From NCBI RefSeq assembly GCF_900091615.1, contig NZ_FMIA01000002.1, positions 558,001 to 622,000 on the forward strand: DNA of 64,000 nt. The letters run 5' to 3'. This DNA comes from Micromonospora yangpuensis (GTDB lineage Bacteria; Actinomycetota; Actinomycetes; Mycobacteriales; Micromonosporaceae). The first letter of the stretch is position 1, and each line of letters opens with the position of its first letter. This document shows, piece by piece, positions 37,969 to 64,000 of this stretch. The translations under genes were made by a program, and so were the position numbers. The notes below the pieces were generated by a model, which was not told the origin of the DNA, ran no database searches, and saw only the letters and a list, made by a program, of their open reading frames with translations.

Positions 37969-39920
37969 GACGGCGTGCTCGGCACGGTCTGCTCAGGACC
38001 GGGCCGGGACGCGGCCGGGTCGGCCGGCGAAGCGGCGGGGCCGGGCGGGGTCGTGGCAGGGCCGGGCCGGGTCGCGGCGGGATCGGGTTCGGTCGGTAGG
38101 TGGTGGGCGCGGATCCGGTCGATGATCGCCGAGGTGGACCGGTCCGGGACGTATCCGAGGGTGCGCACCTGACCGCCGAGGCGGCGGACCAGCGGTGCCT
38201 CGGGCACCATCTCGGGCGGGTAGTCGCCGCCCTTGACGTACACGTCGGGGCGGAGGGCTCCGATCAGCCCGGCCGGTGAGTCCTCGGCGAAGACCACCAC
38301 GTGGTCCACGCAGGAGAGTGCGGCCAGCAGGGTGACCCGGTCCTCGACCGGGTTGACCGGCCGGTCCGGGCCCTTGAGCCGGCGTACGCTCTCGTCGGAG
38401 TTGACCGCCACCACCAGCAGGTCACCGAGGCCCCGGGCCTGTTCCAGGTAGCGGACGTGGCCGGGGTGCAGCACGTCGAAGCAGCCGTTGGTGAAGACCA
38501 CCGTCCGGCCCGCCCGTCGGTGTTGGGCGACGATGGCGCCCAGCTCGTCCGGGCCGACCAGCACCGGTCGTACCGTGCTGGTCGGTGCCTCGCCCCCGAG
38601 CGCGGCGAGCAGGTCGTCGCGGCGGCACACGCAGGTGCCGGTGTCGGAGACCGTGCTGGTGGCGGCGAGTTGGGCGAGCTGCGCGGCGACCGGCAGCGGT
38701 GCCTCGGCGGCCAACGCCAGGGTCATCGCGGCGAGGTACACGTCCCCTGCGCCCACCGCGTGGCTGGCCGGCACCGGGGTGCTGTGGCTGCGCCGGGGGG
38801 TGCCGTCGGCCCCGCCGACCACCGCGCCCTCGGTGTCCAGGGTCACCGCCACCACGTCGGCCCCGGTCTGCTCCCGCAGCTCGGTCAGGCGGGACTCGGC
38901 AAGTACGGCCCGGTCCACGCCCTCGCCGACGGTGGCGTTGACGGTCACCCCGGTACCGGTCACGCTCGACCCGTCCACGGTCATCGCCACCCGGCCCTCA
39001 GCCGCTGTCGGTTCCCCCCGCGGCCCGGGTGCACCGGCCGGCGGGTACCCGTCGGTGGGCGCGGACCGGGCGGCCGGCCCGGACGAGTCGGTCGGCCCCG
39101 ATCCTGCGGGGTCCGGCAGTGGGCCGGCGCGGCCGGGGGCGGCACCGACGGTCAGCTCGGACGGGCCGTCGGAGGGGTCGCTGCCCGCGTGTTCCAGGTG
39201 CAGGTCGCTGCCGCCGGAGCCGGCCGCGCCGGGGGTGGCCCGGGCGAGCAGCCGGGTCGCCTCGGCGAAACTCGGGGTCACCACCGTGGGGGCCAGCCCG
39301 TGCCAGTCGGCGAGGTCGTGCGCGTCCAGGGCCACCGTGGTGAAGCGGTCCCGGGCGGCGATCAGCCAGGCGCGTACCGGTGCGGGCAGGGCACCCAGGC
39401 CGTAGTCACAGACCACCAGGGTGGGGCGCTGCCCACCGGCGGCGGCCCGCAGCTCCTCGGTGGCGCAGTCCATGGCGGTGAGCAGCCGGGCCACCCCGTC
39501 GGCGGTGAGCGCGTCCTCCGGGTCGCCGGAGTCCTCGCGCAGCAGGATCTGCCGGTCGGCGAGCATCCGGCGCTTCACCGGGGTCGGCCGGCCGGGTTCG
39601 TTGACGGTACGGTCCCAGACGCCGGCCCGGTCCAGGCAGTCGTGCAACTCGTCACCGGCGACGTCGCCGCCGACCGGGGCGACGAGGACGGCCCGCCCGC
39701 CCAGCGCGGCGATGTTCACCGCCGTGTTGGCCGCGCCACCGGCGGCGGAGATCCGCCGGCGCAGGGTGAGTACCGGGGCCGGTGCCTCCCGACAGAGGCG
39801 CTCGGAGTCGGCGAACCGCCACTCGTCGAGCATCGCGTCCCCGATGACCAGTACGGGCCGTCCCAGCCAGCTCTGCACGACGGTGGCGAGCCGGTGCTGT
39901 TCCGCTGCTGCTCCTGCCAT
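37965..39920 (-). CDS. hldE: bifunctional heptose 7-phosphate kinase / heptose 1-phosphate adenylyltransferase (HldE)
   Basis: A 651-residue two-domain enzyme of ADP-heptose biosynthesis. The N-terminal PfkB kinase has VLVIGDAMLDEW, AAGGAANTAVNIAALGG and the catalytic-base motif SHAVGAGDVYLAAM. The C-terminal adenylyltransferase has TNGCFDVLHPGHVRYLEQA (HxGH) and ends STSAIIDRIR. ATG 39920 begins MAGAAAEQHRLA; a longer frame to 40064 would overlap the divergent MFS gene. An Ala/Gly/Pro/Ser-rich insertion of about 110 residues (near 215-325) splits the kinase domain, and the C-terminus adds a Pro/Ala tail. Gram-positives use this pathway for glycoprotein, S-layer or antibiotic sugars. Confidence 0.93.
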   Translation of the reverse strand: MAGAAAEQHRLATVVQSWLGRPVLVIGDAMLDEWRFADSERLCREAPAPVLTLRRRISAAGGAANTAVNIAALGGRAVLVAPVGGDVAGDELHDCLDRAGVWDRTVNEPGRPTPVKRRMLADRQILLREDSGDPEDALTADGVARLLTAMDCATEELRAAAGGQRPTLVVCDYGLGALPAPVRAWLIAARDRFTTVALDAHDLADWHGLAPTVVTPSFAEATRLLARATPGAAGSGGSDLHLEHAGSDPSDGPSELTVGAAPGRAGPLPDPAGSGPTDSSGPAARSAPTDGYPPAGAPGPRGEPTAAEGRVAMTVDGSSVTGTGVTVNATVGEGVDRAVLAESRLTELREQTGADVVAVTLDTEGAVVGGADGTPRRSHSTPVPASHAVGAGDVYLAAMTLALAAEAPLPVAAQLAQLAATSTVSDTGTCVCRRDDLLAALGGEAPTSTVRPVLVGPDELGAIVAQHRRAGRTVVFTNGCFDVLHPGHVRYLEQARGLGDLLVVAVNSDESVRRLKGPDRPVNPVEDRVTLLAALSCVDHVVVFAEDSPAGLIGALRPDVYVKGGDYPPEMVPEAPLVRRLGGQVRTLGYVPDRSTSAIIDRIRAHHLPTEPDPAATRPGPATTPPGPAASPADPAASRPGPEQTVPSTPS

Positions 39921-40025
39921 GCCCTGCCGGGTCCCCCGGGCGACCCCGGTCAAACCTGGCTCCGGACCGGGCTCCCGCCCGTCAGTTCTCCGGTTCCGCC
40001 GGACGCACTGACCGAAGAGGCATAA

Positions 40026-41708
<1,683 letters not shown>

Positions 41709-47694: not shown

Positions 47695-48378
47695 TTAGCT
47701 GGGGGATCGACCTTGGCGGGGGGCTGCGGTCGGAGTGCCGTGCCAGGCGGGGTTGGTCGCCGACGGCTGTTGGTAGGAGGCGCCGGCAGAGGTCAGGGCG
47801 GCGGCGTTCGCCACCAGCGCCTGCGGCGCGGCTCCGGCGGCACGGATCGCGAAGGCCTGCTCGACCAGCGGTTTGACGGCAGTGGCCAGCTCCATTTTGG
47901 CCTGGCTGGCCACCGCCTCGGCGTGCCTCACCTGGTTGATGTCCGTGTGTGTCCCGGCGGCCGAGAGCGCGTCGATGAGCTGCTTCTCCTGCTGGCTGAA
48001 AACCCCCCGGACCTCGGTCAGGTAACTCACCGCAGTAGACTTCTGACCCTCGGGAGTGAACTCTGGTCTTGGCGGTGGAATGACGATGTGATCCGGGTTC
48101 CGGTAGATCATCGACTCCGGTTGACCGAACGGGCCGGGTACGGCCTCCTGGTAGCTGGAATCCTCCTTGCCGTAGGTCGCTCGGTACTGCTGGGCGGCGT
48201 CTCGAATGCCCAGCACCCGGCCGGCTTCCATCAGTTTGTCGAGCGGCCTGGCGACCGCCGGATTCATGACGATCGCGCGGCGTTCCGCATCGGTGAGGCG
48301 GGTCGTGGCTTCCTGGAGGGGACCTTCGTCCAGGTATCGGGCGAGTTGTGTTGCTCTGGCGTCTGTGTGTGGATCCAT
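47695..48378 (-). CDS. unknown protein with Ala/Gln/Pro-rich tail (local family member 1)
   Basis: A 227-residue protein starting MDPHTDARATQLARYLDEGP with CAGGAG upstream. The N-terminal part, RLTDAERRAIVMNPAVARPLDKLMEAGRVLGI, resembles the beginning of the proteins at 51888 (KLTDTERQTLF) and 54877 (QLSRDQQAPIANDA). A middle part with Tyr and Pro (YRNPDHIVIPPPRPEF) is followed by a helical stretch and a low-complexity tail ending GTPTAAPRQGRSPS. No signal peptide or known domain. A 24-base poly-G tract lies 40 bp before its start codon. Function unknown. Confidence 0.7.
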   Translation of the reverse strand: MDPHTDARATQLARYLDEGPLQEATTRLTDAERRAIVMNPAVARPLDKLMEAGRVLGIRDAAQQYRATYGKEDSSYQEAVPGPFGQPESMIYRNPDHIVIPPPRPEFTPEGQKSTAVSYLTEVRGVFSQQEKQLIDALSAAGTHTDINQVRHAEAVASQAKMELATAVKPLVEQAFAIRAAGAAPQALVANAAALTSAGASYQQPSATNPAWHGTPTAAPRQGRSPS

Positions 48379-48587: not shown

Positions 48588-49820
48588 TCAGGCCGACTTG
48601 CGCGGGGCGGCCTTCTTCGGGGCGGTCTTCGTCGTCGCCTTCTTCCCGGCTGCCCCGCCGGAGCGGGCCTCCTTCGCCGAGGAGTGCTCGGCGGTCTTCT
48701 TCGCCGGCGCCTTCTTCCCAGCCGACTTCGCCGCACCGGACCGCGCCGGCTCGGACTTCGCCGCACTGGACCGCGCCGGCTCGGACTTCGCGGCCCTGGA
48801 CCGCGCCGGCTCGGACTTCGCGGCCCTGGACCGCGCCGGCTCGGACTTCGCCGCACTGGACTTCGCGGCCCTGGACCGCGCCGGTTCGGACTTCGCGGCC
48901 CGCTCGGACTTGGTTCCCGTACCCGACTTCGCGGCCTTGCGGGCCGAGCGAGCCGAGGTGATCGGCGTCGGCTCACCGGCCCCGCCACCCCGGCCGGCCC
49001 CGGTCCTGCCGCCCCCGCCAGCGGCGGCCCCGCCGCTTTCGCCCCGGGCGGCCTTGGCGCGTTCCACGGAGGCCTTCAGTGCGGCCATCAGGTCCACGGC
49101 GGCGGCCGGGGCCTCCTCGGCCTCCTCCGGCTGGACCACCTCGCGACCCTCCACCTTGGCGTCGATGACCTCCTGCAACGCTGTCCGGTAGTCGTCGGTG
49201 AAGGCCTCCGGCTGGAACTCGCCGGCCATCGAGTCGATCAGGGAGCTGGCCATCGCCAGCTCCGGCGCGCGGATCTTCAGGTCCTCGTCCAGGAAACCGA
49301 AACCGGGGGTACGGACCTCGTCCGGCCAGAGCATCGTGTTGAGCAGCAGCACGCCCTCGCGTACCCGCAGGGTGGCGAGCTGTTCGCGTTGCCGCAGCGC
49401 CACCTTGACGATGGCCACCCGCTCCGAGTCGGTCAACGCGTCGCGTAGCAGCACGTACGGCTTGGTGGCGGTCCCCTCCGGCTCCAGGAAGTACGCCTTG
49501 TTGTAGAGGATCGGGTCGACCTGCTCGGCCGGGACGAACTCCAGCACGTCGATGGCGCGGGAGGAGGTCAACGGCAGGTCGGCGAAGTCTTCGTCGGTGA
49601 GGATGACCAACTCGCCCCCGCCCAGGTCGTACCCCTTGGCGATGTCGTCGTAGCTGACCTCCTCGCCGCAGATCTGGCAGGTGCGCTTGTACCGGATCCG
49701 GCCGCCGTCTTCCCGGTGTACCTGGTGGAAGCGGATGTCCTTCTCCTCGGTGGCGGAGTAGAGCTTCACGCCGATCGAGACCAGACCGAACGAGACGGCC
49801 CCCTTCCAGATGGCCCGCAC
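48588..49820 (-). CDS. ku: Ku, non-homologous end-joining protein
   Basis: A 410-residue bacterial Ku. It starts at GTG 49820 (MRAIWKGAVSFGLVSIGVKLYSATEEKDIRFHQVH) with a GGAGGAG box. The core beta-barrel ring that encircles DNA ends covers about residues 1-260 and includes RTCQICGEEVSYDDIAKGYDL. The C-terminal 140 residues are Lys/Ala/Ser/Pro/Arg-rich (repeated AAKSEPARS units, 48720-48900), an extended basic tail of the kind seen in mycobacterial Ku that binds DNA and recruits LigD. It diverges from two LigD-type genes. Confidence 0.96.
   Translation of the reverse strand: MRAIWKGAVSFGLVSIGVKLYSATEEKDIRFHQVHREDGGRIRYKRTCQICGEEVSYDDIAKGYDLGGGELVILTDEDFADLPLTSSRAIDVLEFVPAEQVDPILYNKAYFLEPEGTATKPYVLLRDALTDSERVAIVKVALRQREQLATLRVREGVLLLNTMLWPDEVRTPGFGFLDEDLKIRAPELAMASSLIDSMAGEFQPEAFTDDYRTALQEVIDAKVEGREVVQPEEAEEAPAAAVDLMAALKASVERAKAARGESGGAAAGGGGRTGAGRGGGAGEPTPITSARSARKAAKSGTGTKSERAAKSEPARSRAAKSSAAKSEPARSRAAKSEPARSRAAKSEPARSSAAKSEPARSGAAKSAGKKAPAKKTAEHSSAKEARSGGAAGKKATTKTAPKKAAPRKSA
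48720..48900 (-). repeat. degenerate 30-bp tandem repeat in the ku tail
   Basis: Units like GACCGCGCCGGCTCGGACTT code on the minus strand for KSEPARS(R/S)AA decapeptides, about five copies. They extend the basic tail and could vary in number between strains. Confidence 0.8.
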
Positions 49821-49924
49821 GCTGCGCTCCTCCCGCCGGCTCCGCCGCAGGTAGCCGGTACTTCTCAGGATGGCAAAGGATCGAAGCCCAGGTGACCGGT
49901 TCGGCGGGCAATTAATGTCGAAAG

Positions 49925-50902
49925 GTGCCAAAAGCGCCGCTCACCCCGATGCTCGCGATGACCGGCCCGCTGCCCCGCGGTGCCGGCTGGGCGTACGAGT
50001 TCAAGTGGGACGGCATCCGCGCGCTGGCCGACATCCGCGCCGGCCGGCAACACCTGTACGCCCGTACCGGCGTGGAGATCACCGCCGCGTACCCGGAGCT
50101 GGCGACCCTGCCCGGTCAGCTCGCCGCGCGGCCGGTCGAGGAGGGGCCACCGATCGACGACGCGTTGTTCGACGGTGAGGTGGTGCTCTTCGCCGGCGAC
50201 TCCGGGGCACCCTCGTTCACCGCGTTGGCCGAACGGATGCACGTGCGGGACCGGGACCGGGCGGCGCGGCTGGCGGCGGTCGCCCCGGTGACGTACATGA
50301 TCTTCGATCTGCTCCGGCTGCGGGGTGCGGACCTGACCGGCTGGCCCTACCACCAGCGGCGGGCGACCCTGGCCGGGCTCGGGCTCGGCGGCAGCCGGTG
50401 GGCGGTGCCGCCGGACTTCGCCGACGGGCCGGCGACCTGGGCGGCGGCCGGCGAACACGGGCTGGAAGGGGTGCTGGCCAAGCGGGTCGGCTCGGTCTAC
50501 CGGCCCGGGGTCCGCTCGCCGGACTGGGTGAAGGTCAAACTGGAGGTCACCGGGGACTTCGTGGTGGGCGGCTGGCGACCCGGGGCCCGTCGGATCGGCG
50601 GCCTGCTGGTCGGGGTGCCCGGCCCGGATGGGCGGCTGACCTACCGGGGACGGGTCGGTGGGGGCATCGGCGCGACCATGGAACGACAGCTGCTGCGGGA
50701 GTTGGAGCCGCTGCGGACCGGCGCGTCCCCGTTCGCCGGGGACGTACCCCGAGAGGACGTCCGGGGCGCGATCTGGGTGACCCCGACGGTGGTGGTGGAG
50801 ATCAAGTACGGCCAGCGGACCCCGGACGGGCGACTGCGCTTCCCCCGGGTCCTGCGGCTACGCCCGGACAAACCGGCCGAGGAGGTCACCGATGCCCAGT
50901 GA
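49925..50902 (+). CDS. ATP-dependent DNA ligase, LigD ligase-domain type
   Basis: A 325-residue ligase. The adenylated Lys is in motif I, YEFKWDGIRALADI (Lys27). Motif III is FDGEVVLF, motif IV region EGVLAKRVGSVYRPGVRSPDWVKVKL (motifs IV and V), and an OB-fold domain follows. It has neither polymerase nor phosphoesterase domain, so it equals the ligase part of LigD or LigC. GTG 49925 is 104 bp from the divergent ku start. It overlaps the polymerase gene by 11 bp, indicating joint synthesis for end joining. Confidence 0.93.
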   Translation: MPKAPLTPMLAMTGPLPRGAGWAYEFKWDGIRALADIRAGRQHLYARTGVEITAAYPELATLPGQLAARPVEEGPPIDDALFDGEVVLFAGDSGAPSFTALAERMHVRDRDRAARLAAVAPVTYMIFDLLRLRGADLTGWPYHQRRATLAGLGLGGSRWAVPPDFADGPATWAAAGEHGLEGVLAKRVGSVYRPGVRSPDWVKVKLEVTGDFVVGGWRPGARRIGGLLVGVPGPDGRLTYRGRVGGGIGATMERQLLRELEPLRTGASPFAGDVPREDVRGAIWVTPTVVVEIKYGQRTPDGRLRFPRVLRLRPDKPAEEVTDAQ

Positions 50903-51800
50903 GCGGCTCCGGGTCGAGGTGCAGGGGCGGGCGCTGGAGCTGTCCAACCTCGACAAGGTGCTCTACCCGGCGGCCGGATTCACCAAGGGCGAGGTGATCG
51001 ACTACTACACCCGGATCGCCCCGGTGCTCCTGCCGCACCTGGCCGACCGGGCGCTGACCCGGATCCGGTACCCCAACGGCGTCGACGGCGGCTCGTTCTT
51101 CGAGAAGAACGCCCCCGCCGCCACCCCCGACTGGGTACGGGTGGCCACCCTGCCCGCGCCCGGCTCCCGCAAGGGCCGGGACACCATCGACTACGTGGTC
51201 GCCGACGACCTACCCACCCTGGTCTGGCTGGCCAACCTGGCCGCCCTGGAACTGCACACCCCGCAGTGGCGGATCGGCGCGCACCCGGACCTGCTCGTCG
51301 TCGACCTGGACCCGGGCGCCCCGGCCGGGCTGCGCCAGTGCTGCCAGGTGGCGCTGCTGCTGCGCGACCGGCTGGCCGCCGACGGGGTACGGGCCTTCCC
51401 GAAGACCTCCGGCAAGAAGGGCATGCAGCTCTCCTGCCCGATCGCCGGCACCCAGTCCGCCGAGTTGGTCAGCTCCTACGCTCGCCGGGTCGCCCAGGAG
51501 TTGGAGGGTGAGCACCCGAAGTTGATCGTGTCGAAGATGGCGAAGAACCTCCGCCCCGGCAAGATCTTCATCGACTGGAGCCAGAACAACGCGGCGAAGA
51601 CCACAGTCGCGCCGTACTCGCTGCGGGCCGCGCCGACGCCTACCGTCTCCACCCCGCTGACCTGGGACGAGGTCGAGGCCGGCGCAGCCGGCAAGGGTCC
51701 GGCCCGCACCCCGTACGGCCCCCCCGAAGTCCTAGCCCGAGTCGATTCCCACGGCGACCTCCTGGTAAGGAAGGGCCCCTTCTTAACGCTTCCGGTATAG
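50892..51800 (+). CDS. LigD-type polymerase/primase (AEP) domain protein
   Basis: A 302-residue archaeo-eukaryotic primase-like polymerase. Motif I is LLVVDLDPGAP (Asp-x-Asp catalytic pair), the SxH-equivalent region is FPKTSGKKGMQLSCPI, and motif III is KIFIDWSQNNAAKT. It fills or extends ends during NHEJ. It starts in the end of the ligase gene. The C-terminus is odd: the frame runs from SHGDLL straight into a dispersed palindrome and ends VRKGPFLTLPV, so the last 11 residues and the TAG stop are supplied by the repeat. Position next to Ku and the ligase leaves little doubt about function. Confidence 0.94.
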   Translation: MPSERLRVEVQGRALELSNLDKVLYPAAGFTKGEVIDYYTRIAPVLLPHLADRALTRIRYPNGVDGGSFFEKNAPAATPDWVRVATLPAPGSRKGRDTIDYVVADDLPTLVWLANLAALELHTPQWRIGAHPDLLVVDLDPGAPAGLRQCCQVALLLRDRLAADGVRAFPKTSGKKGMQLSCPIAGTQSAELVSSYARRVAQELEGEHPKLIVSKMAKNLRPGKIFIDWSQNNAAKTTVAPYSLRAAPTPTVSTPLTWDEVEAGAAGKGPARTPYGPPEVLARVDSHGDLLVRKGPFLTLPV

Positions 51801-51887: not shown

Positions 51888-52502
51888 TCAGCGCTTGAAG
51901 ACCGTGCGGGCGAGGTTCCTGAGATCGTGGTGGCCGGTGGAACTGCTGGCCTGACCGGCCGCCGGGCCACCGCCCAGGTTGGCTGCCGCGGCGACTCCGG
52001 AGTTGCGCCCTCGAACGATGTCCCGGGCCGCGCCGGCCACCACCGGAGTCAGTTCTCCCAGCCGGTTCTCGTACCGCTGACGGGCTTCCAGCAGCAGATC
52101 TTCGGAGGTTGCCAGTCCACTCCTGAGTGCGGCCTCGTAGGCGGTGGCCTCGGGATGGGGGATCCTGTTGGCCCACTCGTACCCCATCGCCTGCATGTTG
52201 ATGTCGTCGTGGGCCTGGCGCGTCGTGTAGTGCACGACCTCCCCGGCGTCGTCATACCCGACATGGTGTCCGGGAGTCTGGAACGAGCCGCCCCCGAGCG
52301 CCTTCTCCTTGATCCCCTCGTGCCGCAGCCACTCGACAAGGTCGGCCTTCGCGGCCGCGAACGCGCCGGCCGCCGCACTGTCCTGGAACAGGGTCTGCCG
52401 CTCAGTGTCGGTCAGTTTGTCGAGCTGCTTCGCATCTCTCCTGGGAAGTCGCTTGCCGAGATCGTCAAGGATCTGCTGGTCGTTCTCGTCCATCTCCGTC
52501 AC
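51888..52502 (-). CDS. unknown protein (local family member 2)
   Basis: A 204-residue protein. It begins MTEMDENDQQILDDLGKRL from GTG 52502 (an ATG three codons later is possible). The segment DAKQLDKLTDTERQTLFQDSAAAGAFAAAKADLVEWLRHEGIKEKALGGGSF recalls the proteins at 47695 and 54877, followed by a short beta part (HHVGYDDAGEVVHYTTRQAHDD). The C-terminus is Ala/Gly/Ser-rich. It is predicted cytoplasmic. Function unknown; relatedness to the other family members is judged by eye and is weak. Confidence 0.65.
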   Translation of the reverse strand: MTEMDENDQQILDDLGKRLPRRDAKQLDKLTDTERQTLFQDSAAAGAFAAAKADLVEWLRHEGIKEKALGGGSFQTPGHHVGYDDAGEVVHYTTRQAHDDINMQAMGYEWANRIPHPEATAYEAALRSGLATSEDLLLEARQRYENRLGELTPVVAGAARDIVRGRNSGVAAAANLGGGPAAGQASSSTGHHDLRNLARTVFKR

Positions 52503-53891: not shown

Positions 53892-54296
53892 TCACCGACC
53901 CGATCGGCGCTGCTGCGGCGGTACGCCGTCCTTGAAGAAGTGGTCGGCCCCGGGCCGACTGGCCGCGCTGGTCCGGCCCGGCGCGGCCGGGTCCTTCAGG
54001 TACTGGCCGGGCCAGGCACCCGTCGTCCGGGTCTGCTCCGCGAAGTCGTCGGCCGTCGGCCGCCGCGGACTCGGCTCGCTGTCGACCCCCGGTACGACGT
54101 AGAAGTAGCCCTTTCCGCCCTGGCTGGTTGAGGTCGACGGAGCCGGCGCGGTCGGGTCCGGCCCGCCGTACTGCGGTGCCCGTGCCTGGGCCGCCCACGC
54201 CTGGGCGGGGTCGAAGCTGGGCTGCGCCGGGGAGGTCGTCGGCGCTGCGGTCCGGTGCGAACCGTTGGCCCACGCGCTGACGAAAGCGTTGAGCAT
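53892..54296 (-). CDS. unknown low-complexity protein (local family member 3)
   Basis: A 134-residue protein with ATG 54296 and a GGAGAG box. It starts MLNAFVSAWANGSHRTAAPT and is mainly disordered: FDPAQAWAAQARAPQYGGPDPTAPAPS, then GGKGYFYVVPGVDSEPSPRRPTADDFAEQTRTTGAWPGQYLKDP. Only short hydrophobic bits occur. The QARAPQYG segment recalls QARATQYAPS in the protein at 54877 and QARAAGYPPS in that at 59941. No signal peptide. Function unknown. Its start lies close to a truncated methyltransferase gene on the other strand. Confidence 0.6.
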   Translation of the reverse strand: MLNAFVSAWANGSHRTAAPTTSPAQPSFDPAQAWAAQARAPQYGGPDPTAPAPSTSTSQGGKGYFYVVPGVDSEPSPRRPTADDFAEQTRTTGAWPGQYLKDPAAPGRTSAASRPGADHFFKDGVPPQQRRSGR

Positions 54297-54360
54297 CGGC
54301 TCTCCAGTCTCTCGTCGTCCGTGCCGATCCGATCGAGTCCGCCCAAGGGTCTGCTGCGGG

Positions 54361-54876: not shown

Positions 54877-55566
54877 TTACCGGCGGGCGGGTCCCTGGGG
54901 CGTCGGTGCGCCGGGCCAGCCGAAGAACTGTTGACCGTAGGGGCCCTGAGGGGCCATGGGTGGCGGCGGCTGGTGTGGGTTCGACGGCGCGTACTGCGTT
55001 GCCCGGGCCTGCGCGACCCCGGCCAACGCGGTCTGGTCTTGGGCGACCGGTCCGGCTGACCACGACGACTGTGCGGGCGGCGCGGTCAGCTCCTGAATCT
55101 TGCCACTGACGACGGAGTTCACACCATTTTGGAGTGTTTGGATCTCCTGTTCGCAGCTCTTCGTCTCGTCGGTGCTGCCGAGGATTCTAGCCTGCTTGGC
55201 GCGTTCGATCTGGGGCGGCTCACCGGGGAGGTTCGGCATGGGCCAGTGACCGCCGAGCAGGTAACTTCCCTGCATCCCCGTCTCCGCATCGCGGAAGACG
55301 ATGTGGGTGCTGTTGCTCAGCGTCTCACGGCCCGGTTCGGAGTAGTAGTTGCCCTTCCCTTTGTCGATCGCATCCATGGCCTTCGCTCGCACCGATTGGT
55401 TATGTCCCACGACGCTTTCGAGATAGGTCAGCTGCTCAAGCGCGTATGCCGCATCGTTGGCGATGGGCGCTTGCTGGTCGCGGCTGAGCTGCTCGAAGTT
55501 CGCTCGAATTTCCGGATCCAGGCGGTGCCGCAGCTGTTCGATCGCTTGGTCTGTGGTCAGGGGCAT
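54877..55566 (-). CDS. unknown protein with Pro/Gln-rich tail (local family member 4)
   Basis: A 229-residue protein with ATG 55566 and a GGAG box. Residues 1-60 (TTDQAIEQLRHRLDPEIRANFEQLSRDQQAPIANDAAYALEQLTYLE) are helical. Residues about 60-165 form a small mixed domain (DKGKGNYYSEPGRE, THIVFRDAETGMQGSYLLGG, IERAKQARILGSTDET). Then comes a Pro/Gln/Ala tail (QARATQYAPSNPHQPPPPM). The protein at 59941-60408 matches residues from about 58 to the tail. It lies 61 bp behind the six-gene operon and may be its last member. Function unknown. Confidence 0.72.
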   Translation of the reverse strand: MPLTTDQAIEQLRHRLDPEIRANFEQLSRDQQAPIANDAAYALEQLTYLESVVGHNQSVRAKAMDAIDKGKGNYYSEPGRETLSNSTHIVFRDAETGMQGSYLLGGHWPMPNLPGEPPQIERAKQARILGSTDETKSCEQEIQTLQNGVNSVVSGKIQELTAPPAQSSWSAGPVAQDQTALAGVAQARATQYAPSNPHQPPPPMAPQGPYGQQFFGWPGAPTPQGPARR

Positions 55567-55627: not shown

Positions 55628-56320
55628 TCAACCCGGACGCTTCTGAAAGGCGAGGATCCGGTGCCCGGCGATGTCTGGTACGTCCCTTTCGCCGACTACC
55701 TTCCAGCCCGTGCGCTCCACTGACTCCCGTGACCGCACGCCGCCCGGCCCGTACGTGTTGACGACGAGGTGGCCGCCCCCTCTGGTAATGCGGTGCAGTT
55801 CCTCGAAGGCGCGTACCGGCAGCGTGAAGTGCAGGACGAAACAGGCAACTGTGAGGTCCATCCGGGAGTTCCCGATGGGAATGTCACCGTCGGTGGAGAT
55901 CTGGAACACCCGTCCCTTCGGCCTGGACCGGCGCAGCGAAGCGAAGCTTATGTCGCACCCGAGCACGTGGGCGTTCGGCAATCTGGTGGCAAGTGTCCGG
56001 GAGAACCTGCCGTCACCGGTTCCGAAGTCCAGCACGACCGGCCCTGCGTCGGCGGCCGCGATCCTCTCCGCCGCCGCCTCGCGGAGCTGGTGGGCCACCT
56101 TCGCGTAGATCGTCTCGTCGATCAGTTCGTCCATGAACTCAAGACGCAGTTCACACAGCTCGGCAACCATCGAAGGATCGAGATCGTGCACCGGTAGCGG
56201 GCTGTACAGGCGATCCATGAACCGGAACCACGGCCGGCCGTCGATCATCAGTTGTCGCGGTCCTCGGGGTTGGCCAGGTGCCAGGAGCAGGAAGGAGCCG
56301 TGCCGGGTGAGGTCAAACAT
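55628..56320 (-). CDS. class I SAM-dependent methyltransferase, last gene of the six-gene operon
   Basis: A 230-residue enzyme. Motif I is VVLDFGTGDGRFSRTLA (residues about 95-111), motif II includes HVLGCDISFASLRRS, motif post-III/IV MDLTVACFVLHFTLPVRAFEELHRITRGGGHLVVNTYGPGG. The N-terminal 90 residues are family-specific and include the Trp/Phe-rich DGRPWFRFMDRLYSPL, possibly for substrate recognition. ATG 56320 lies eight bases within the HD gene. Substrate is unknown; in the operon context a nucleotide or RNA terminus is possible. Confidence 0.88.
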   Translation of the reverse strand: MFDLTRHGSFLLLAPGQPRGPRQLMIDGRPWFRFMDRLYSPLPVHDLDPSMVAELCELRLEFMDELIDETIYAKVAHQLREAAAERIAAADAGPVVLDFGTGDGRFSRTLATRLPNAHVLGCDISFASLRRSRPKGRVFQISTDGDIPIGNSRMDLTVACFVLHFTLPVRAFEELHRITRGGGHLVVNTYGPGGVRSRESVERTGWKVVGERDVPDIAGHRILAFQKRPG

Positions 56321-57023
56321 CGCTCCAGGAACCTATTCTCACGCCCCGGTCGAGCTGCCACCGCACTTCCTCGGCGATGCTGTCGGCGAGGAGCGGGTGT
56401 CGGCGCTCGGCGAGCGGAACATGAAACTGTACGGCCTGCCAGAGCCAGCGGGGAATCTTCCGGTAGGCCTGGTGTCGGTCGTCGACGAACCGACACGAGA
56501 TCAGATTGTCCAACACATCGACCAGATGGACCAGCAGGGTGATCCCGCCCTCGGCGGAGACCCGCTGCCACTTCTCCTGCTTCCGCTGCGAGCGGGCCGT
56601 TGACGACTCGCCGACAGTGGCCGGAGCGGAGAGCAGCACGACCGACCGGGCGACCTGCCCACCGTAGTCGCGGGCCAGCTCGGCAGCGGTGACGCCGCAG
56701 TCCTCGACGACGTCGTGCAGCAGCGAGATGAGGACCGTCTCCACCGGGCCGGCCGGGCGGTAGGCGAGACTCAGCAGGGCGACGCGTCGGGGATGGACGA
56801 TGTACGGCGACCCGTCCCCCCTGGTCTGGCCGCGGTGCCACGTCTCGGCCTGGCGGTCGCAGCGCAGCACGGTCTGGGCCCCGGTTGGCTCGTACGACGC
56901 GTCCTGTGTCGCCTGGGCGAGCAGGTTCCGGTAGGACTCCGCAGGCTCGATGGATTCGCGGAGTCGCGTCACGGTCCGCCCGAAAGCAGGCGCGTCAGAG
57001 GTGGATGGACTTGAGGACTTCAA
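56313..57023 (-). CDS. HD-domain hydrolase of the RelA/SpoT-MESH1 type
   Basis: A 236-residue protein. The (p)ppGpp-hydrolase signature is complete: His63 in TWHRGQTRGDGSPYIVHPRRV, His77-Pro, HDVVED at 103-108, and Asp169/Asn173 in LVHLVDVLDNL, spaced as in SpoT and MESH1. No synthetase or regulatory domain follows. It may hydrolyse ppGpp-like, ppApp-like or another pyrophosphorylated nucleotide; metal dependence (Mn2+) is expected. The start is TTG 57023 with AAGGGG upstream, 29 bases inside the 2H gene; GTG 56972 is an alternative. It is the fifth gene of the operon. Confidence 0.87.
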   Translation of the reverse strand: MKSSSPSTSDAPAFGRTVTRLRESIEPAESYRNLLAQATQDASYEPTGAQTVLRCDRQAETWHRGQTRGDGSPYIVHPRRVALLSLAYRPAGPVETVLISLLHDVVEDCGVTAAELARDYGGQVARSVVLLSAPATVGESSTARSQRKQEKWQRVSAEGGITLLVHLVDVLDNLISCRFVDDRHQAYRKIPRWLWQAVQFHVPLAERRHPLLADSIAEEVRWQLDRGVRIGSWSDV

Positions 57024-57543
57024 GCTTTATCCCCTTCGGTCCGCTTCTGGCGATGTCGATCGTGCTGACGGTGGCTGGCGGAATCGGGGGAGCGGTGTTG
57101 ATTATCCCGTCCAACTGCGCCCCGGACTGCTCCGTGCACGAGATGGTGAGGTGCGGGGTGGCGCTGGTGCGGGACGGTTCCGCGTAGATGTCCACCAACC
57201 GCGACTGGATCAGTGACCGCCAGTTGGCCGCCCGGTCGGGGAGCACCACGTCGAGGAGGATGTAGCGGCCGGTCTCCGTTTCACGGTAGGCGGGACCAAA
57301 CGTCATGTCGAATGGCCCGCCGAGTTCGGTCAGCAGGCTGCGGGTCGCTTCCTCGACAGCGGCCACCCTGCTGCTCGGCAACAGTCCCATCGCCACCGTC
57401 ACGTGCGGTTCGGAGTTGCCGGCTGCTCCCAGCCGCACCTGTACCGGCACCTCGGCCGCCACCGCGTCACTGAGCCGTACGCAGGTGGAGCGGGCCGAAC
57501 CCCCCACCGGAAAGCTGACACCTACCTTGATCAGGTCGGTCAC
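56995..57543 (-). CDS. 2H phosphoesterase (2'-5' RNA ligase-like)
   Basis: A 182-residue protein with the two catalytic His-x-Thr motifs of the 2H superfamily: PHVTVAM (His47) and PHLTISC (His131), in mirror-image halves. 2H enzymes open 2',3'-cyclic phosphates, cleave 2'-5' links, or process ADP-ribose 1'',2''-cyclic phosphate. No membrane segment. GTG 57543 overlaps the stop of the nucleotidyltransferase gene by four bases. Company with a kinase, a nucleotidyltransferase and a methyltransferase suggests RNA-end or small-nucleotide processing. Confidence 0.87.
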   Translation of the reverse strand: MTDLIKVGVSFPVGGSARSTCVRLSDAVAAEVPVQVRLGAAGNSEPHVTVAMGLLPSSRVAAVEEATRSLLTELGGPFDMTFGPAYRETETGRYILLDVVLPDRAANWRSLIQSRLVDIYAEPSRTSATPHLTISCTEQSGAQLDGIINTAPPIPPATVSTIDIARSGPKGIKLEVLKSIHL

Positions 57544-58022
57544 GCCTGCTTCCTCCTTATGTCCTCGATGATGTCGCTGGTGGACCGTTCCTGGGGTCGC
57601 GGTAGCTGCATGAGCCTGATCTCCAGTCGCCGCAGTTCCGCGATGTCAGCTGTCGAGAAGTACTCGAAGTGGGTCGCGCAGAAGCAGGAGGGGCGAACCG
57701 CGAGGATGGTCGAGCACGGGTTCGTGTCGTCGTAGGGGACAATGTAGTCGATCATTGTGAGGCTCGACAGGATGCCGACCCGTTCACGAAAGGTCAGAAT
57801 CGGTCGACCCGGACCCTTGCGTCGCCTGACCGATGTGTCGGTGGCAAGCGCCACCACCAGGGAGTCTCCGTGTTCCCGGGCCATCCAGAGAGATTCCACG
57901 TGACCGAGGTGGGTGAGGTCGTAGACACCCTTGGCCATCGAGATCCGCCCGAGCCGGTTCCGGATCTCGGTGCTCTGCAGATGAGGCAGGTCGACCAGTC
58001 GTGACCTGGGTGACCGGTTCAC
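57540..58022 (-). CDS. HxGH-type nucleotidyltransferase (cytidylyl/adenylyltransferase fold)
   Basis: A 160-residue protein. KGVYDLTHLGHVESLWMAREHGDSLVVALATD has the HxGH motif (His38, His41) of the RfaE/TagD/CoaD superfamily, with the second conserved block RRRKGPGRPILTFRERVGILSSLTMIDYIVPYD and the closing motif STSDIIEDI. It is a distant relative of the adenylyltransferase half of HldE in this window. It should transfer a nucleotidyl group from ATP or CTP to a phosphorylated substrate. Four-base overlaps join it to the kinase before and the 2H gene after it. Confidence 0.87.
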   Translation of the reverse strand: MNRSPRSRLVDLPHLQSTEIRNRLGRISMAKGVYDLTHLGHVESLWMAREHGDSLVVALATDTSVRRRKGPGRPILTFRERVGILSSLTMIDYIVPYDDTNPCSTILAVRPSCFCATHFEYFSTADIAELRRLEIRLMQLPRPQERSTSDIIEDIRRKQA

Positions 58023-58696
58023 GGGGCTGATCCTGGAGTTGGTCCGGCGGTCAGGTCGGGGAACTCCCCGATTATGTGGCGGAGCACGGTGTGTGCGGTG
58101 TCCACCACCCGGCCGTTCAGTTCGGCGGTGTCCACCAGGACGACCTTGCTGGCCATGCCGATATCGGCTCGCGTATCGGCGACCGCCCGCGCGGAGAACT
58201 CAAGCTCGTGCAGGAAGGATCTGTTCATAACTCGGCCGGCACCGGTCGAGAGCTTGTTTCTGGTCTCCCGGTCGAGGCTCAACTCGGGAGTGGTGACGAA
58301 GATGAAGCAGAGGTCCGGGCGCGGGACATCAGTGCAGCCGAGCAGCGCGGTGACAAGCGCTTGATGGGAGTCTGAGACCCGGCCCATGCGAGTAAGTGCA
58401 TCGGTGAAGATGAATCGGTCGACCGGTCCCCGGTCCATCAGGTGAATCTGGGGAGACCTTCTGCGGCTGTTCCCCTCCAGCAGGTACTGGACCGCCTGGC
58501 AGGCGAGGTAGACGTTCAGGGCGCCAAGATCCTCCTTGCCGACCGGAGCGTAGCGTCCGCCGCCGTGGAACTCCGCGATGTCCGCGCCGGACCGGCGCAG
58601 ATAGTGGCTGATGACGTCCACGATCGTCGTCTTGCCGCTTTTCGGCATGCCGGCGAACTCGATGTAGGTGTTCCCCGCACGGATAGCCTGGGACAT
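58019..58696 (-). CDS. P-loop kinase, thymidylate/deoxynucleoside-kinase-like
   Basis: A 225-residue protein. Walker A is FAGMPKSGKTTIV (residues 14-26), and LMDRGPVDRFIFTDAL (87-102) resembles the Asp-Arg substrate motif of dTMP and deoxynucleoside kinases. LCFIFVTTPELSLDRETRNK looks like Walker B plus the LID arginine region. It is not the housekeeping Tmk, which is at 16457. It should phosphorylate a nucleoside, nucleotide or RNA 5' end. ATG 58696 is the last base of the TPR stop region (ATGA). Second gene of the operon. Confidence 0.85.
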   Translation of the reverse strand: MSQAIRAGNTYIEFAGMPKSGKTTIVDVISHYLRRSGADIAEFHGGGRYAPVGKEDLGALNVYLACQAVQYLLEGNSRRRSPQIHLMDRGPVDRFIFTDALTRMGRVSDSHQALVTALLGCTDVPRPDLCFIFVTTPELSLDRETRNKLSTGAGRVMNRSFLHELEFSARAVADTRADIGMASKVVLVDTAELNGRVVDTAHTVLRHIIGEFPDLTAGPTPGSAP

Positions 58697-59814
58697 CAGT
58701 TTCCTTCCCTGAGCACTCGTTTTCGAGCGGACACGACGTCGGCCTCGGGAAAAGCCTGAAGAGACGCTTCGGCATCCAGGTCGATGCCTTTTGCCGCGAG
58801 GTAGAAGGTCATGTGGCCGAGGACCGCCTGCCGGTCCCGCGCCTCGTGGCACGCCACGGCGAGAAGTGCCACGATCTTGTTTGCCGCGTCCTCCTGCTCC
58901 GGAGTGTCGAGGCTGCGGCGATACGTCCACTCGATGGTCATGCACCAGATTTCCTTGATCCTTCTGGCACTCCTGAGCGTCTCGGCGTCGGCGTGGGCGT
59001 CGCGCAGCACGGGAATCGCGGCCCGGTCGTCCTGGAGCTTGGTGAGGATGAGGGCCTGATAGAACTTTCCGAACGGCTCTCGCGGGGCAACCCTCGTCGC
59101 CTCCCCGAAGGCCGACAGCGCGTCCTCGTACCGTTCGCTGTCTCTGAGTAGCAGCCCCAGGTAGTTCCAGTTGTCGCTGGACTTCGGATCGAGGTCGACT
59201 GCCCGCTCGGCAAAGTCGATGGCCTCGGTCAGGTTGACGTAGCGACGACAGGTGGAGAGCGCCCGCCAGGCGTCCGCGTTCAGGGGATCCCGGGTCGTCG
59301 CCGCACGCAGCACGCGTTCGGCACGGCTGTTGAAGCCCTTGTTCACCAGGGCCCGCGCGAAACGGACCTGAATCCGCGGATTGTCGGGTTGAAGCTCCAG
59401 CGCCTGCTGGTAGGAGGAGATCGCTCGATCGTAGTCCGCTTTCGCGTACGCCACCTGTCCCTCGTGGAACAGATGTGCGGTCATCACGAGCGCCTCAAGG
59501 TCGACGTGGAGGCTCTTGAGCTTGCCCTCGATCTCGTCACGGGTCTCCTGGGCCGCGGCCAGGGCCCTACTCAACTCGCGTTGCCGTCGCCTGATCGTCG
59601 CCATCTCCCGCAGGCCCAGGAACGCCAGCAGGGCGAGGAAGAGGGTCAGCACCGTGACGACACCGACGCTGATCTGAAGGGCCAGGTTGGCGGTGTCGAG
59701 ATAGGTCCCGGGGTCCAGTGCGGGGGGTGGTGCGTCCCCACCGGGCGGCGCAGTCCCGGGTGGCGGCAGGCTGATCAGGGGAGAAAGCGGTGTGCGGCCG
59801 GATCCGAGCGGCAC
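58696..59814 (-). CDS. membrane-anchored coiled-coil TPR protein, first gene of the operon
   Basis: A 372-residue protein. GTG 59814 follows a strong AAGGAGA box; an upstream GTG at 59877 has none. After a Pro-rich outer segment, one membrane helix (residues about 45-68, LALQISVGVVTVLTLFLALLAFLGL), a charged coiled coil (69-110) and at least four TPR repeats follow (ADYDRAISSYQQALELQPDN; LTEAIDFAERAVDLDPKSSDNWNYLGLLL; YEDALSAFGEATRVAPRE). TPRs bind protein partners, so it may gather the operon's enzymes at the membrane. No catalytic motif. Confidence 0.88.
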   Translation of the reverse strand: MPLGSGRTPLSPLISLPPPGTAPPGGDAPPPALDPGTYLDTANLALQISVGVVTVLTLFLALLAFLGLREMATIRRRQRELSRALAAAQETRDEIEGKLKSLHVDLEALVMTAHLFHEGQVAYAKADYDRAISSYQQALELQPDNPRIQVRFARALVNKGFNSRAERVLRAATTRDPLNADAWRALSTCRRYVNLTEAIDFAERAVDLDPKSSDNWNYLGLLLRDSERYEDALSAFGEATRVAPREPFGKFYQALILTKLQDDRAAIPVLRDAHADAETLRSARRIKEIWCMTIEWTYRRSLDTPEQEDAANKIVALLAVACHEARDRQAVLGHMTFYLAAKGIDLDAEASLQAFPEADVVSARKRVLREGN

Positions 59815-59940: not shown

Positions 59941-60408
59941 CTACCGCTGGCCTCGCAGCTGGGGTGGCGGTGCGTTGCCCGGGCCGCCGCTGAACTGCTG
60001 CCAGGCCGGGGGCGGCGGGAACTGGGTGGTGGGGTGCTGGCTCGACGGCGGGTACCCGGCTGCCCGTGCCTGCGTCACCTCCGCCAGGGTGGCCTGGTCC
60101 GGCGGAGCTGGTGTCGGTGGTCGCACGCGCAGGATCGCGTCACGCACCCTGGTGTCCAGTGTCGACGTGGCAAGTTCCAGCTGGTCGGTGTGGTACATGA
60201 TCTCGTTCGTGCTGGAGTACCGGCCGTTGGCCTTGGCGTGTTGGATCTGTTCCGCCTCGCCGGCCTGTACAAGGTGGTGGTTCTGGAGCAGGTGACTGCC
60301 CTGCCGGTTCGCCCAGACGACGTGATCCCGGTTTTCCTCGGGCTGGCCGGCTGCCCGGTAGAAGGACGCCTTTCCTGCCGCCACCGCCGCACAGGCCTGG
60401 TCCTTCAC
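59941..60408 (-). pseudogene. N-terminally shortened paralog of the protein at 54877 (local family member 5)
   Basis: The frame from GTG 60408 gives 155 residues: GKASFYRAAGQPEENRDHVVWANRQGSHLLQ, EAEQIQHAKANGRYSSTNEI and a tail QARAAGYPPSSQHPTTQFPPPPAW. These align throughout with residues from about 58 of the protein at 54877 (GKGNYYSEPGRE, SYLLGG, IERAKQARILGSTDET, QARATQYAPS). The first 58 residues are missing and no convincing ribosome binding site precedes 60408, so it may be a remnant, although the body is intact and could be translated. It lies 126 bp ahead of the TPR gene, on its strand. Confidence 0.55.
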
Positions 60409-60486
60409 CGCTTCGCTCGGTCTCTGCTGACGGTGGCGATGACGGATGCCGGATGCCTGTCGGTTCAACCCAGACCCCGCCTGACC

Positions 60487-62258: not shown

Positions 62259-63323
62259 TCAGCGGCCCGGTGGGGAGACCCGGCGGGACAGGGTGGCCGC
62301 GTGGTGCTTCGCCGGGGTGGTGTGGCCGTACCAGCTGCTCGGTGTGCTGGTGTTCTCCCACCGGCGGGCCTCGCCGACGCTCTTCGCGGCGAGTCCGACC
62401 GCCTGGAGGCTGAGGCCGGCGTACCGGGCGACCGGGTTGGCGGTGGCGACCCCACCGGCGATGGTGGCCGCGCCCACCGCGCTGAACAGGCCGCCCATCA
62501 GCTTGGGCACGTTCACCCCCTTGCCCTGGACTCCCCGGACCACCTCGCTGGCGAACTCGCCGGCCGCCGTACCGCCGGCGAACAGGGCGGCGGCCACCGC
62601 CGTCGGGATCGGTCCGGCCGTTCCGGTGCCGCCGGTGTCGAGGCTGCGCTGCTCCAGCTGGCGCTGGGTGCGCAGCGCCACGGCCTGTAGCACCGGGGCG
62701 GCGGTGGTGACGAAGGCGCCCACCATCTTGGCGATGTCCCCGCTCGGCGTACGGGTCAGAGCGGGGGTGCCGTCCTCCCACCGGTACCCCTCGCCGACCC
62801 CCTTGAGGACCAGGCCGACGTCCTGCACGCCCATGCCGGCGTACCGGGTCGGATCGACCCGGTTGGCCATGCCACCCACGTTGACCAGCAGCCCACCGGA
62901 GGTGAGGACGCCGCCGAGCAGCTTCGGCACGTTGATCCGGCCCTCCTGGAGGTACTTGACCACCTCACTCGCCGCGTCGCCGATCGCGGTGGCGATGGAG
63001 ACACCGACCCCGGCGGTGGCCAACTGCTGGCCCTGACCGGCCACGTTGGCGATGCCCACCCCGGGCACCGCCAGCGCGACGGCCGCCCCGATCGACTTGG
63101 CCAGGTCCCCGTCCAGGTACGACCGCCGGACCGGCTCGTACCCACCCGACTCCAGCGAGCCGGGTGGGCGGTGTCCCGGGTACGGCGGCGGGCTGGGTTG
63201 CCGGGAAACTGCCGGGCTGGATTGCGGGGAGACCGCCGGGCTGGGCTGCCGGGAGACTGCCGGGCTGGAGTCGCGGGAGGGGGGCAACGGGATCTGCGCG
63301 GGGTCGACGGGCTGTCGTACCAC
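62259..63323 (-). CDS. unknown protein built from a duplicated module
   Basis: A 354-residue protein. The N-terminus is a Pro/Ser repeat (SPAVSRQPSPAVSPQSSPAV). The body has two related halves of about 80 residues: GDAASEVVKYLQEGRINVPKLLGGVLTSGGLLVNVGGMANRVDPTRYAGMGVQDVGLVLKGVGEGYRWED at about 110-190, and GEFASEVVRGVQGKGVNVPKLMGGLFSAVGAATIAGGVATANPVARYAGLSLQAVGLAAKSVGEARRWEN at about 255-330. These Gly/Ala-rich stretches are amphipathic or weakly hydrophobic and may be membrane-active. No signal peptide. I do not recognise the family. Confidence 0.72.
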   Translation of the reverse strand: MVRQPVDPAQIPLPPSRDSSPAVSRQPSPAVSPQSSPAVSRQPSPPPYPGHRPPGSLESGGYEPVRRSYLDGDLAKSIGAAVALAVPGVGIANVAGQGQQLATAGVGVSIATAIGDAASEVVKYLQEGRINVPKLLGGVLTSGGLLVNVGGMANRVDPTRYAGMGVQDVGLVLKGVGEGYRWEDGTPALTRTPSGDIAKMVGAFVTTAAPVLQAVALRTQRQLEQRSLDTGGTGTAGPIPTAVAAALFAGGTAAGEFASEVVRGVQGKGVNVPKLMGGLFSAVGAATIAGGVATANPVARYAGLSLQAVGLAAKSVGEARRWENTSTPSSWYGHTTPAKHHAATLSRRVSPPGR

Positions 63324-63431: not shown

Positions 63432-64000
63432 TCACCGCCGCTGACCCGCCCCGGGACGGCCCTGGGCCTGGCTCGATCCGCCTGCCGGCGGTGAGTACCC
63501 GGAGGGCGCGGACTGCGCGGTCTGATGTCGCCAAGACTCGGGCATCTGCTGCCACAGCGGGGCGGACGGGCGCGTCGGGGACGCTCCACCCTGCCCGTGT
63601 AGTCGTTGCAGGTCCGTCGCCGCCCGGTACAACGGGCCGCTGACATGACCTGCCTCCACCATCATCCCCACGACGGTGGCGGCGGCTGCCGCCTGCTGGT
63701 CGGGGCCAATGTTCACCATCCTCGCGATCTGGTAGTTGAGTTTCCCGGTGAGCTCCGGTGCGAGATGGGGGCGCTCGTTCAGAAAGGCCCGTTCCAGTGA
63801 CCGCCTGCTGTCCTGAAAGGATGGTGCCGGATTGGACATCGAGTGCGGCAGGGTGGCTGCCCTGGCCGGTGCGGGCAGGGAACTCTCCGATGCGTTCCCC
63901 GCCACCGGGTGCGTCGCCCGTCGAACGGCCGGACGCGGGGGATCCGTGGGGCCGGTCCGTGAGGCGGGAAAGGCCGCGGCAATCGCCTTGAAGGTCTCCT
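63432..64000 (-). CDS. unknown protein with Pro/Gln/Ser-rich tail (local family member 6), 5' end outside window
   Basis: From 63905 the frame codes 157 residues, and it stays open to the window edge with GC-type codon use (ETFKAIAAAFPASRTGP), while the starts at 63905 (GTG) and 63839 (ATG) lack ribosome binding sites. The gene therefore probably begins beyond base 64000. The recognisable part is helical: DSRRSLERAFLNERPHLAPELTGKLNYQIARMVNIGPDQQAAAAATVVGMMVEAGHVSGPLYRAATDLQRL, then a tail QTAQSAPSGYSPPAGGSSQAQGRPG. Function unknown. Its tail resembles those of the other local family members. Confidence 0.6.
   Translation of the reverse strand, partial: ETFKAIAAAFPASRTGPTDPPRPAVRRATHPVAGNASESSLPAPARAATLPHSMSNPAPSFQDSRRSLERAFLNERPHLAPELTGKLNYQIARMVNIGPDQQAAAAATVVGMMVEAGHVSGPLYRAATDLQRLHGQGGASPTRPSAPLWQQMPESWRHQTAQSAPSGYSPPAGGSSQAQGRPGAGQRR

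What the first reader, a model, noticed from the sequence alone, without database searches (positions are those of the whole stretch)
55628..59814. Six-gene translationally coupled operon: TPR anchor, P-loop kinase, HxGH nucleotidyltransferase, 2H phosphoesterase, SpoT-like HD, methyltransferase
Seen: six minus-strand genes with overlaps of 1, 4, 4, 29 and 8 bases, each with intact catalytic motifs. Known: these folds phosphorylate, nucleotidylate, open cyclic phosphates, hydrolyse pyrophosphorylated nucleotides and methylate. Together they cover the chemistry of RNA-end healing or of making and breaking a modified nucleotide signal. Inference: the set forms one pathway, assembled on a membrane-bound TPR scaffold, perhaps for RNA repair, nucleotide signalling or defence. 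I know of no named system with this combination.
Basis: partly seen in the sequence, partly recalled or inferred. Interest (0 to 1): 0.85.

Follow-up and report, generated by a model that had tools for sequence, protein, structure and literature searches.

The report
Rare mobile nucleotide-enzyme gene cassette
A compact run of overlapping bacterial genes for a membrane-anchored scaffold and nucleotide-handling enzymes also occurs, in the same order minus one enzyme, at an unrelated place in a Streptomyces genome, so it looks like a small mobile unit that makes or clears an unknown nucleotide-like molecule.

Summary
In detail: six minus-strand genes at 55628-59814 overlap by 1, 4, 4, 29 and 8 bases and have the stated folds and motifs. 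They are not a chance row. Five of them (TPR anchor, kinase, HxGH nucleotidyltransferase, 2H phosphoesterase, methyltransferase; 40-55% identity) occur in the same order and strand in a Streptomyces genome, inserted between two genes that lie close together in 4 of 8 relatives. The SpoT-like HD gene is absent there. It belongs to a tight clade; 3 of its 9 other members lie on metagenome contigs of the same length as those of kinase relatives (0 of 50 control HD proteins). So the unit is a five-gene core plus an optional HD hydrolase, rare and apparently moved between genomes. No PADLOC system fits and no RNA ligase is in either block; the nucleotidyltransferase is HldE-like (small-molecule activating), so RNA repair is the weaker reading. 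Best explanation: a membrane-tethered pathway that phosphorylates a nucleoside-like compound, couples it to a nucleotide, methylates it and trims 2'/3' phosphates, so makes or clears a nucleotide signal or antimetabolite. The chemistry is inferred from families, not shown. Defence is possible but unproven.

The parts
58696..59814 (-). gene 1: TPR protein with one N-terminal transmembrane-like stretch (372 aa, GTG start)
   Evidence: 48% identity over 335 aa to the Streptomyces copy
58019..58696 (-). gene 2: P-loop kinase of the nucleoside/thymidylate kinase fold, own family (GMPKSGKTT, HGGGRYAP, DRG)
57540..58022 (-). gene 3: HxGH nucleotidyltransferase, related to HldE domain II / HldC but below the curated cut-off
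56995..57543 (-). gene 4: 2H phosphoesterase with HVT and HLT motifs
56313..57023 (-). gene 5 (optional): SpoT/MESH1-like HD hydrolase with metal and ED residues kept, basic residues of the substrate pocket changed
55628..56320 (-). gene 6: SAM methyltransferase; closest solved relative by sequence RlmA (23S rRNA methyltransferase A)

Best explanation
A self-contained, horizontally moved cassette of five core genes plus an optional sixth encodes a small-molecule nucleotide pathway tethered to the membrane by the TPR protein. Proposed steps: the kinase phosphorylates a nucleoside-like substrate; the HxGH enzyme joins that phosphate to an NMP, giving an X-pp-nucleoside; the methyltransferase modifies the product or precursor; the 2H enzyme opens or cleaves 2',3'-cyclic or 2'-5' linkages; where present, the HD enzyme removes a 2'- or 3'-(pyro)phosphate. 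The product would be a signal, antimetabolite or modified cofactor used in a conflict or stress response. Shown: gene content, conservation of order in one other genus, joint insertion there, folds of kinase and HD, motifs. Inferred: every substrate, the direction (making or clearing), the assembly on the TPR protein and the biological role.
Against: Only two operons could be read in full. Genes in one operon need not act on one substrate. The HD is missing in Streptomyces, and only 3 of 20 kinase contigs of 7 kb or more match an HD-clade contig, so it cannot be essential to the pathway. No substrate residue was tested. Distant kinase relatives in three other genomes (27-32% identity) stand without the partner genes in the 20 kb read, so the fold alone does not imply the pathway. 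The methyltransferase's closest solved relative is an rRNA methyltransferase, which would fit an RNA substrate, though NCBIfam models for small-molecule methyltransferases (BioC 2.1e-10) score it as well or better.
Confidence: 0.4

Rival explanations
1. RNA-end healing or tRNA repair: the 2H enzyme opens 2',3'-cyclic ends, the kinase phosphorylates 5' ends, the nucleotidyltransferase or methyltransferase restores or caps ends.
For: 2H enzymes are widely used to open cyclic RNA ends (passage in PMC9503650); the methyltransferase's closest solved relative is RlmA, an rRNA enzyme.
Against: No RNA ligase in either block; the nearest ligase seen, an ATP-dependent DNA ligase beside Ku at 49925-50902, has no counterpart in the Streptomyces block. 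Kinase matches nucleoside and thymidylate kinases. HxGH enzymes of the HldE type work on small phosphomonoesters (recalled).
Confidence: 0.12
2. Miniature nucleoside antibiotic or antimetabolite pathway (or its self-resistance), with cryptic phosphorylation and activation.
For: Closest solved kinase by Foldseek is AbmG of albomycin biosynthesis, described as a nucleoside kinase that catalyses phosphorylation and dehydration (passage in PMC12691670); actinobacterial hosts; methyltransferase present.
Confidence: 0.2
3. Alarmone control: the HD enzyme is a small alarmone hydrolase that balances a nucleotide made by the other genes or by an outside synthetase, as in toxin-antitoxin pairs.
Against: No RelA-type synthetase domain in either block; HD absent from the Streptomyces copy; the residue after the conserved Arg (RRSG in Thermus Rel) is Gly, Ala or Ser in all 10 family members, the Lys of KLAD is His in all 10, and DRLHN reads DVLDN or DILDN in 9 of 10 and DKVDN in one, which argues for another substrate.
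Confidence: 0.1
4. NDP-sugar or heptose activation for glycosylation.
For: Nucleotidyltransferase is nearest to heptose-1-phosphate adenylyltransferase models (RfaE domain II 100 bits, cut-off 181.5).
Against: No PfkB-type sugar kinase, isomerase or glycosyltransferase domain in either block; 2H and HD enzymes have no known role in such a pathway (recalled).
Confidence: 0.08
5. The genes lie together by chance.
For: Actinobacterial genes often overlap by 1-4 bases (recalled).
Against: Same five-gene order at an unrelated site in Streptomyces at 40-55% identity and joint insertion.
Confidence: 0.02

Closest known systems
NadR/HldE-type kinase + HxGH nucleotidyltransferase modules (recalled as a class)
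   Same: A kinase with a nucleotidyltransferase that turns the phosphorylated compound into a diphosphate-linked nucleotide
   Different: Kinase of another family (thymidylate/nucleoside kinase fold), joined by 2H, methyltransferase, TPR anchor and optional HD; substrate unknown
AbmG (albomycin nucleoside kinase)
   Same: Foldseek first match of the kinase model (8j5f, E 7.9e-10) and the only PDB match of the family profile by sequence (8j5g, 8j5e)
   Different: 18-20% identity; no other albomycin-type genes in the block; thymidylate kinases score somewhat higher in the second look
SpoT/Rel hydrolase domain, small alarmone hydrolases, MESH1
   Different: Separate clade with a sharp score gap (E 2e-44 to 1e-12), altered basic residues, own conserved C-terminal residues (KxPRWxxQ, RG)
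2H phosphoesterases (2_5_RNA_ligase2 / LigT)
   Same: Two HxT motifs, PF13563 above its cut-off in the window copy
   Different: No solved relative by sequence up to E 1; Streptomyces copy just below the Pfam cut-offs
NAD-ADPr and RNA-repair conflict systems described by Aravind and co-workers
   Same: 2H enzymes, P-loop kinases and nucleotidyltransferases occur among their parts (passages in PMC9503650 and PMC7824862)
   Different: The passages I read do not describe this combination; no RNA ligase, KptA or macro domain among the Pfam hits here

Membership tests
RNA repair system (healing and sealing) | RNA ligase encoded with the healing enzymes | tested here: not met
   No ligase domain among the six window proteins or the five of L205
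RNA repair system (healing and sealing) | kinase acting on RNA 5' ends | not testable with these tools
   Fold matches nucleoside/thymidylate kinases; no assay
small alarmone hydrolase / Rel hydrolase domain | HD fold with His, His-Asp and Asp metal ligands and the ED pair | tested here: met
   H77, H103, D104, E107, D108, D169, N173 invariant in 10 members and aligned with Rel; residue roles recalled
small alarmone hydrolase / Rel hydrolase domain | basic residues of the (p)ppGpp pocket (R-K/R-x-G and K-L-A-D-R-x-x-N) | tested here: inconclusive
   First Arg kept in all 10; second basic residue lost in all 10; Lys before the Asp is His in all 10; Arg after it is replaced in 9 of 10, Lys in P0017; roles recalled
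small alarmone hydrolase / Rel hydrolase domain | hydrolysis of ppGpp | not testable with these tools
   needs an assay
HldE domain II / HldC heptose-phosphate adenylyltransferase | score above the curated cut-off of TIGR02199 | tested here: not met
   100 bits against 181.5
HldE domain II / HldC heptose-phosphate adenylyltransferase | HxGH nucleotidyltransferase domain | tested here: met
   PF01467 49.5 bits (cut-off 21); HLGH in the window, HYGH in Streptomyces
thymidylate kinase (Pfam PF02223) | score above Pfam gathering cut-off | tested here: not met
   16.7 bits against 27; 3 of the 41 relatives carry a precomputed PF02223
thymidylate / nucleoside kinase fold | same fold with Walker A | tested here: met
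2H phosphoesterase | two HxT/S motifs and PF13563 match | tested here: met
   33.2 bits against 27 in the window copy; HVT and HLT in both copies; Streptomyces copy 21.9 bits, below the cut-off
known anti-phage defence system (PADLOC-DB 2.0.0) | matches to the models of one system | tested here: not met
   Only LmuB on the TPR protein (0.002) and mad2 on the methyltransferase domain (5.6e-9); none for kinase, nucleotidyltransferase, 2H, HD
mobile accessory cassette | present at unrelated sites, site empty or differently filled in relatives | tested here: met
   Streptomyces site: of 8 relatives fetched (20 searched) 4 empty, 4 with other cargo; the window site could not be tested this way

The most novel reading that the evidence does not exclude
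A previously unnamed membrane-tethered system makes a new class of nucleotide second messenger or antimetabolite (a nucleoside joined to a nucleotide through a diphosphate, methylated, with its 2'/3' phosphates controlled by the 2H and HD enzymes) and serves in anti-phage or inter-bacterial conflict, with the HD hydrolase as an optional off-switch.
Probability: 0.2. Interest if true: 0.85.

Novelty: new variant of a known kind. Interest (0 to 1): 0.58.

Why it matters
If the genes make one molecule, this would be a compact, transferable route to an unknown nucleotide, with two phosphoesterases that point at 2'/3' phosphate chemistry. It gives a defined five-gene unit to express and a clear yes/no test by metabolomics and phage challenge. 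It also sets out two sequence groups that the libraries searched do not resolve as families of their own: the HGGGRYAP kinases (most without a Pfam match) and the HD clade with the PRW tail (only the general HD_4 model).

Tried and rejected
Viral contigs with the HD alignment: 80 kept of 224. A phmmer pass over all 198 loci then held (kinase, nucleotidyltransferase, 2H, methyltransferase; TPR not searched) found, outside the window's own locus and L035 (kinase): other nucleotidyltransferases of the own genome (L002, L003), one nucleotidyltransferase-like ORF in viral locus L134 (1e-7), methyltransferase-like ORFs in L086 (3e-8) and L097 (2e-6), and chance-level kinase-profile hits in L197 and L198; no second block. 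Viral contigs with the kinase alignment: none confirmed. Plasmids: kinase, a Streptomyces kinase relative, 2H, TPR (E 1e-10) and methyltransferase (E 1e-8) no match; HD three Rel-like places; nucleotidyltransferase 31 records, of 15 listed 7 annotated as rfaE1/rfaE2; I opened one (Streptomyces plasmid NBC_01601): a different cluster. Phages: none for a kinase relative, the 2H enzyme or the methyltransferase.

Kinase searches of whole genomes: phylum 396, own plus one distant relative (single protein); class 394, own plus two chance-level hits; genus of G222 343, G991 plus two distant relatives; own family 280, own only; own order 219, own only; two guessed families 57 and 58, none (I had hoped to hit the family of Myceligenerans, which carries relative P0077, and have no sign that either was right). 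Samples overlap. HD in 200 genomes of the own family: 199 match, all but the window's own gene at 58 bits or less, i.e. Rel-like.

The 2H protein search found only a 99%-identical record (P0007), yet a 40% relative exists in G991, so that tool misses true relatives and its empty answers prove little; the same limit holds for the HD and kinase counts. An attempt to find the empty site for the window copy failed: the MarR-acetyltransferase neighbour has relatives at 57-61% in nine congeners, but the six regions I fetched share no other called window gene there, apart from a 28% transporter-like match in one. Riboswitch search: none in the window stretch; one sub-threshold CRISPR-repeat match in L205, taken as chance. 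That the window is from the class of Streptomyces follows from G991 being listed as same class.
Full report
What is there. The finding's six ORFs exist at the stated places and overlap by 1, 4, 4, 29 and 8 bases. Families: TPR repeats; a P-loop protein under the thymidylate kinase cut-off; CTP_transf_like with HLGH; 2_5_RNA_ligase2 with HVT and HLT; HD_4; Methyltransf_11. The TTG start of the HD gene is supported by an AAGGGGA six bases before it and by family residues upstream of the other candidate start, though one database record has the length of the later start.

Is it one unit? The kinase protein search gave 41 relatives at 40-61% identity; one is annotated as from Streptomyces sp. NBC_01498. 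A search of 343 genomes of the genus of G222 found that genome as G991 (contig length 7267618 in both) and two others with only a distant kinase. In G991 the block reads TPR, kinase, nucleotidyltransferase, 2H, methyltransferase on one strand, with 48, 53, 55, 40 and 44% identity over 335, 204, 151, 183 and 222 residues. There the junctions are a 40-base gap, a 4-base overlap, a 6-base gap and a gap of at least 62 bases before the methyltransferase, whose start is uncertain. No HD gene lies in the block, and the whole genome has only two Rel/SpoT-like HD places. The distant kinases of G345, G1119 and G1131 stand without the partners in the 20 kb read; in G345 the next gene reads like a NUDIX protein to me, but Pfam gave no match.

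Mobility. In G991 the block sits between a TetR gene and an acyl-CoA dehydrogenase gene. Twenty-one genomes including G991 were searched with the dehydrogenase and eight of the twenty relatives fetched. All eight have the TetR gene on the far side of the site; the space between aligned ends is 48, 93, 95 and 207 bases in four and 1671, 2037, 3522 and 4492 bases in the other four. Those four hold an M28 peptidase, a lysyl-oxidase-like protein, a histidine kinase with what I read as a response regulator and another gene, and a 1476-residue NACHT protein (its caspase-like start is my reading only). So the site takes variable cargo and the five genes came as one piece. GC3 is 0.77-0.81 in the Streptomyces block, against mostly 0.86-0.94 in flanking called genes. 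In the window the block has 0.80-0.84; called genes below 47.6 kb average 0.91, with the selection bias told under the observation check, and the nearest hypothetical genes are as low as the block. In the window the block lies between two paralogous small genes, 54877-55566 and an ORF ending at 59941 (35% over 144 residues).

Mechanism. From general knowledge of these families, a kinase plus an HxGH enzyme is a usual way to turn a small molecule into a diphosphate-linked nucleotide; 2H enzymes act on 2',3'-cyclic or 2'-5' linkages; SpoT/MESH1 enzymes remove 2'/3' (pyro)phosphates. One consistent scheme is therefore a nucleotide made or cleared at the membrane, with the HD as an optional second trimming step. 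All substrates are inferred. RNA repair is less likely for want of a ligase and by the type of kinase and nucleotidyltransferase.

Novelty. PADLOC gives no system; three kinase relatives and two cargo proteins gave no match either. Six literature searches aimed at the gene set showed no paper on it in their listings; three more concerned AbmG, MESH1 and the strain name. I read passages of PMC9503650, PMC7824862 and PMC12691670 and the abstracts of PMC9765508 and PMC13221220; the rest I saw as listings. Subscription papers are mostly not held, so this is weak evidence. I call it a new variant of a known kind (mobile nucleotide-enzyme cassettes).

Noticed in passing
window 54877-55566 (-) and 59941-60471 (-): The genes on either side of the block are paralogs (35% over 144 aa; 70% DNA identity over 148 bp) with proline-rich tails; no Pfam family above its cut-off. 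The upstream one may lack its 5' part, where the MarR-acetyltransferase gene begins.
   Followed up: partly
window 47695-48378, 51888-52502, 53892-54302, 62259-63323, 63432-63905 (all -): Further small proteins without a Pfam match in the same 16 kb; 53892-54302 shares the QARAxQY stretch of the two paralogs (13 residues, not significant). Perhaps an array of fast-evolving accessory genes.
   Followed up: partly
window 48588-51800: NHEJ set: Ku, ATP-dependent DNA ligase and LigD primase-polymerase as separate genes, with Ku divergent.
   Followed up: partly
window 37965-40064 (-): A second HldE-like protein (PfkB kinase plus CTP_transf_like) beside a family 2 glycosyltransferase; its nucleotidyltransferase part is 38% identical to gene 3.
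   Followed up: partly
L241 1279-5709 (-): 1476-residue NACHT protein with a caspase-like N-terminus (my reading) as alternative cargo at the Streptomyces insertion site.
   Followed up: partly
L202 8758-10079 (-): Distant kinase of the same profile followed by a protein that reads like a NUDIX hydrolase (no Pfam match), in a 2.4 Mb genome of the same phylum.
   Followed up: partly
window near 58078 and 59865: A 13-base stretch CACATAATCGGGG occurs before the TPR gene and inside the kinase gene; probably chance.
   Followed up: no
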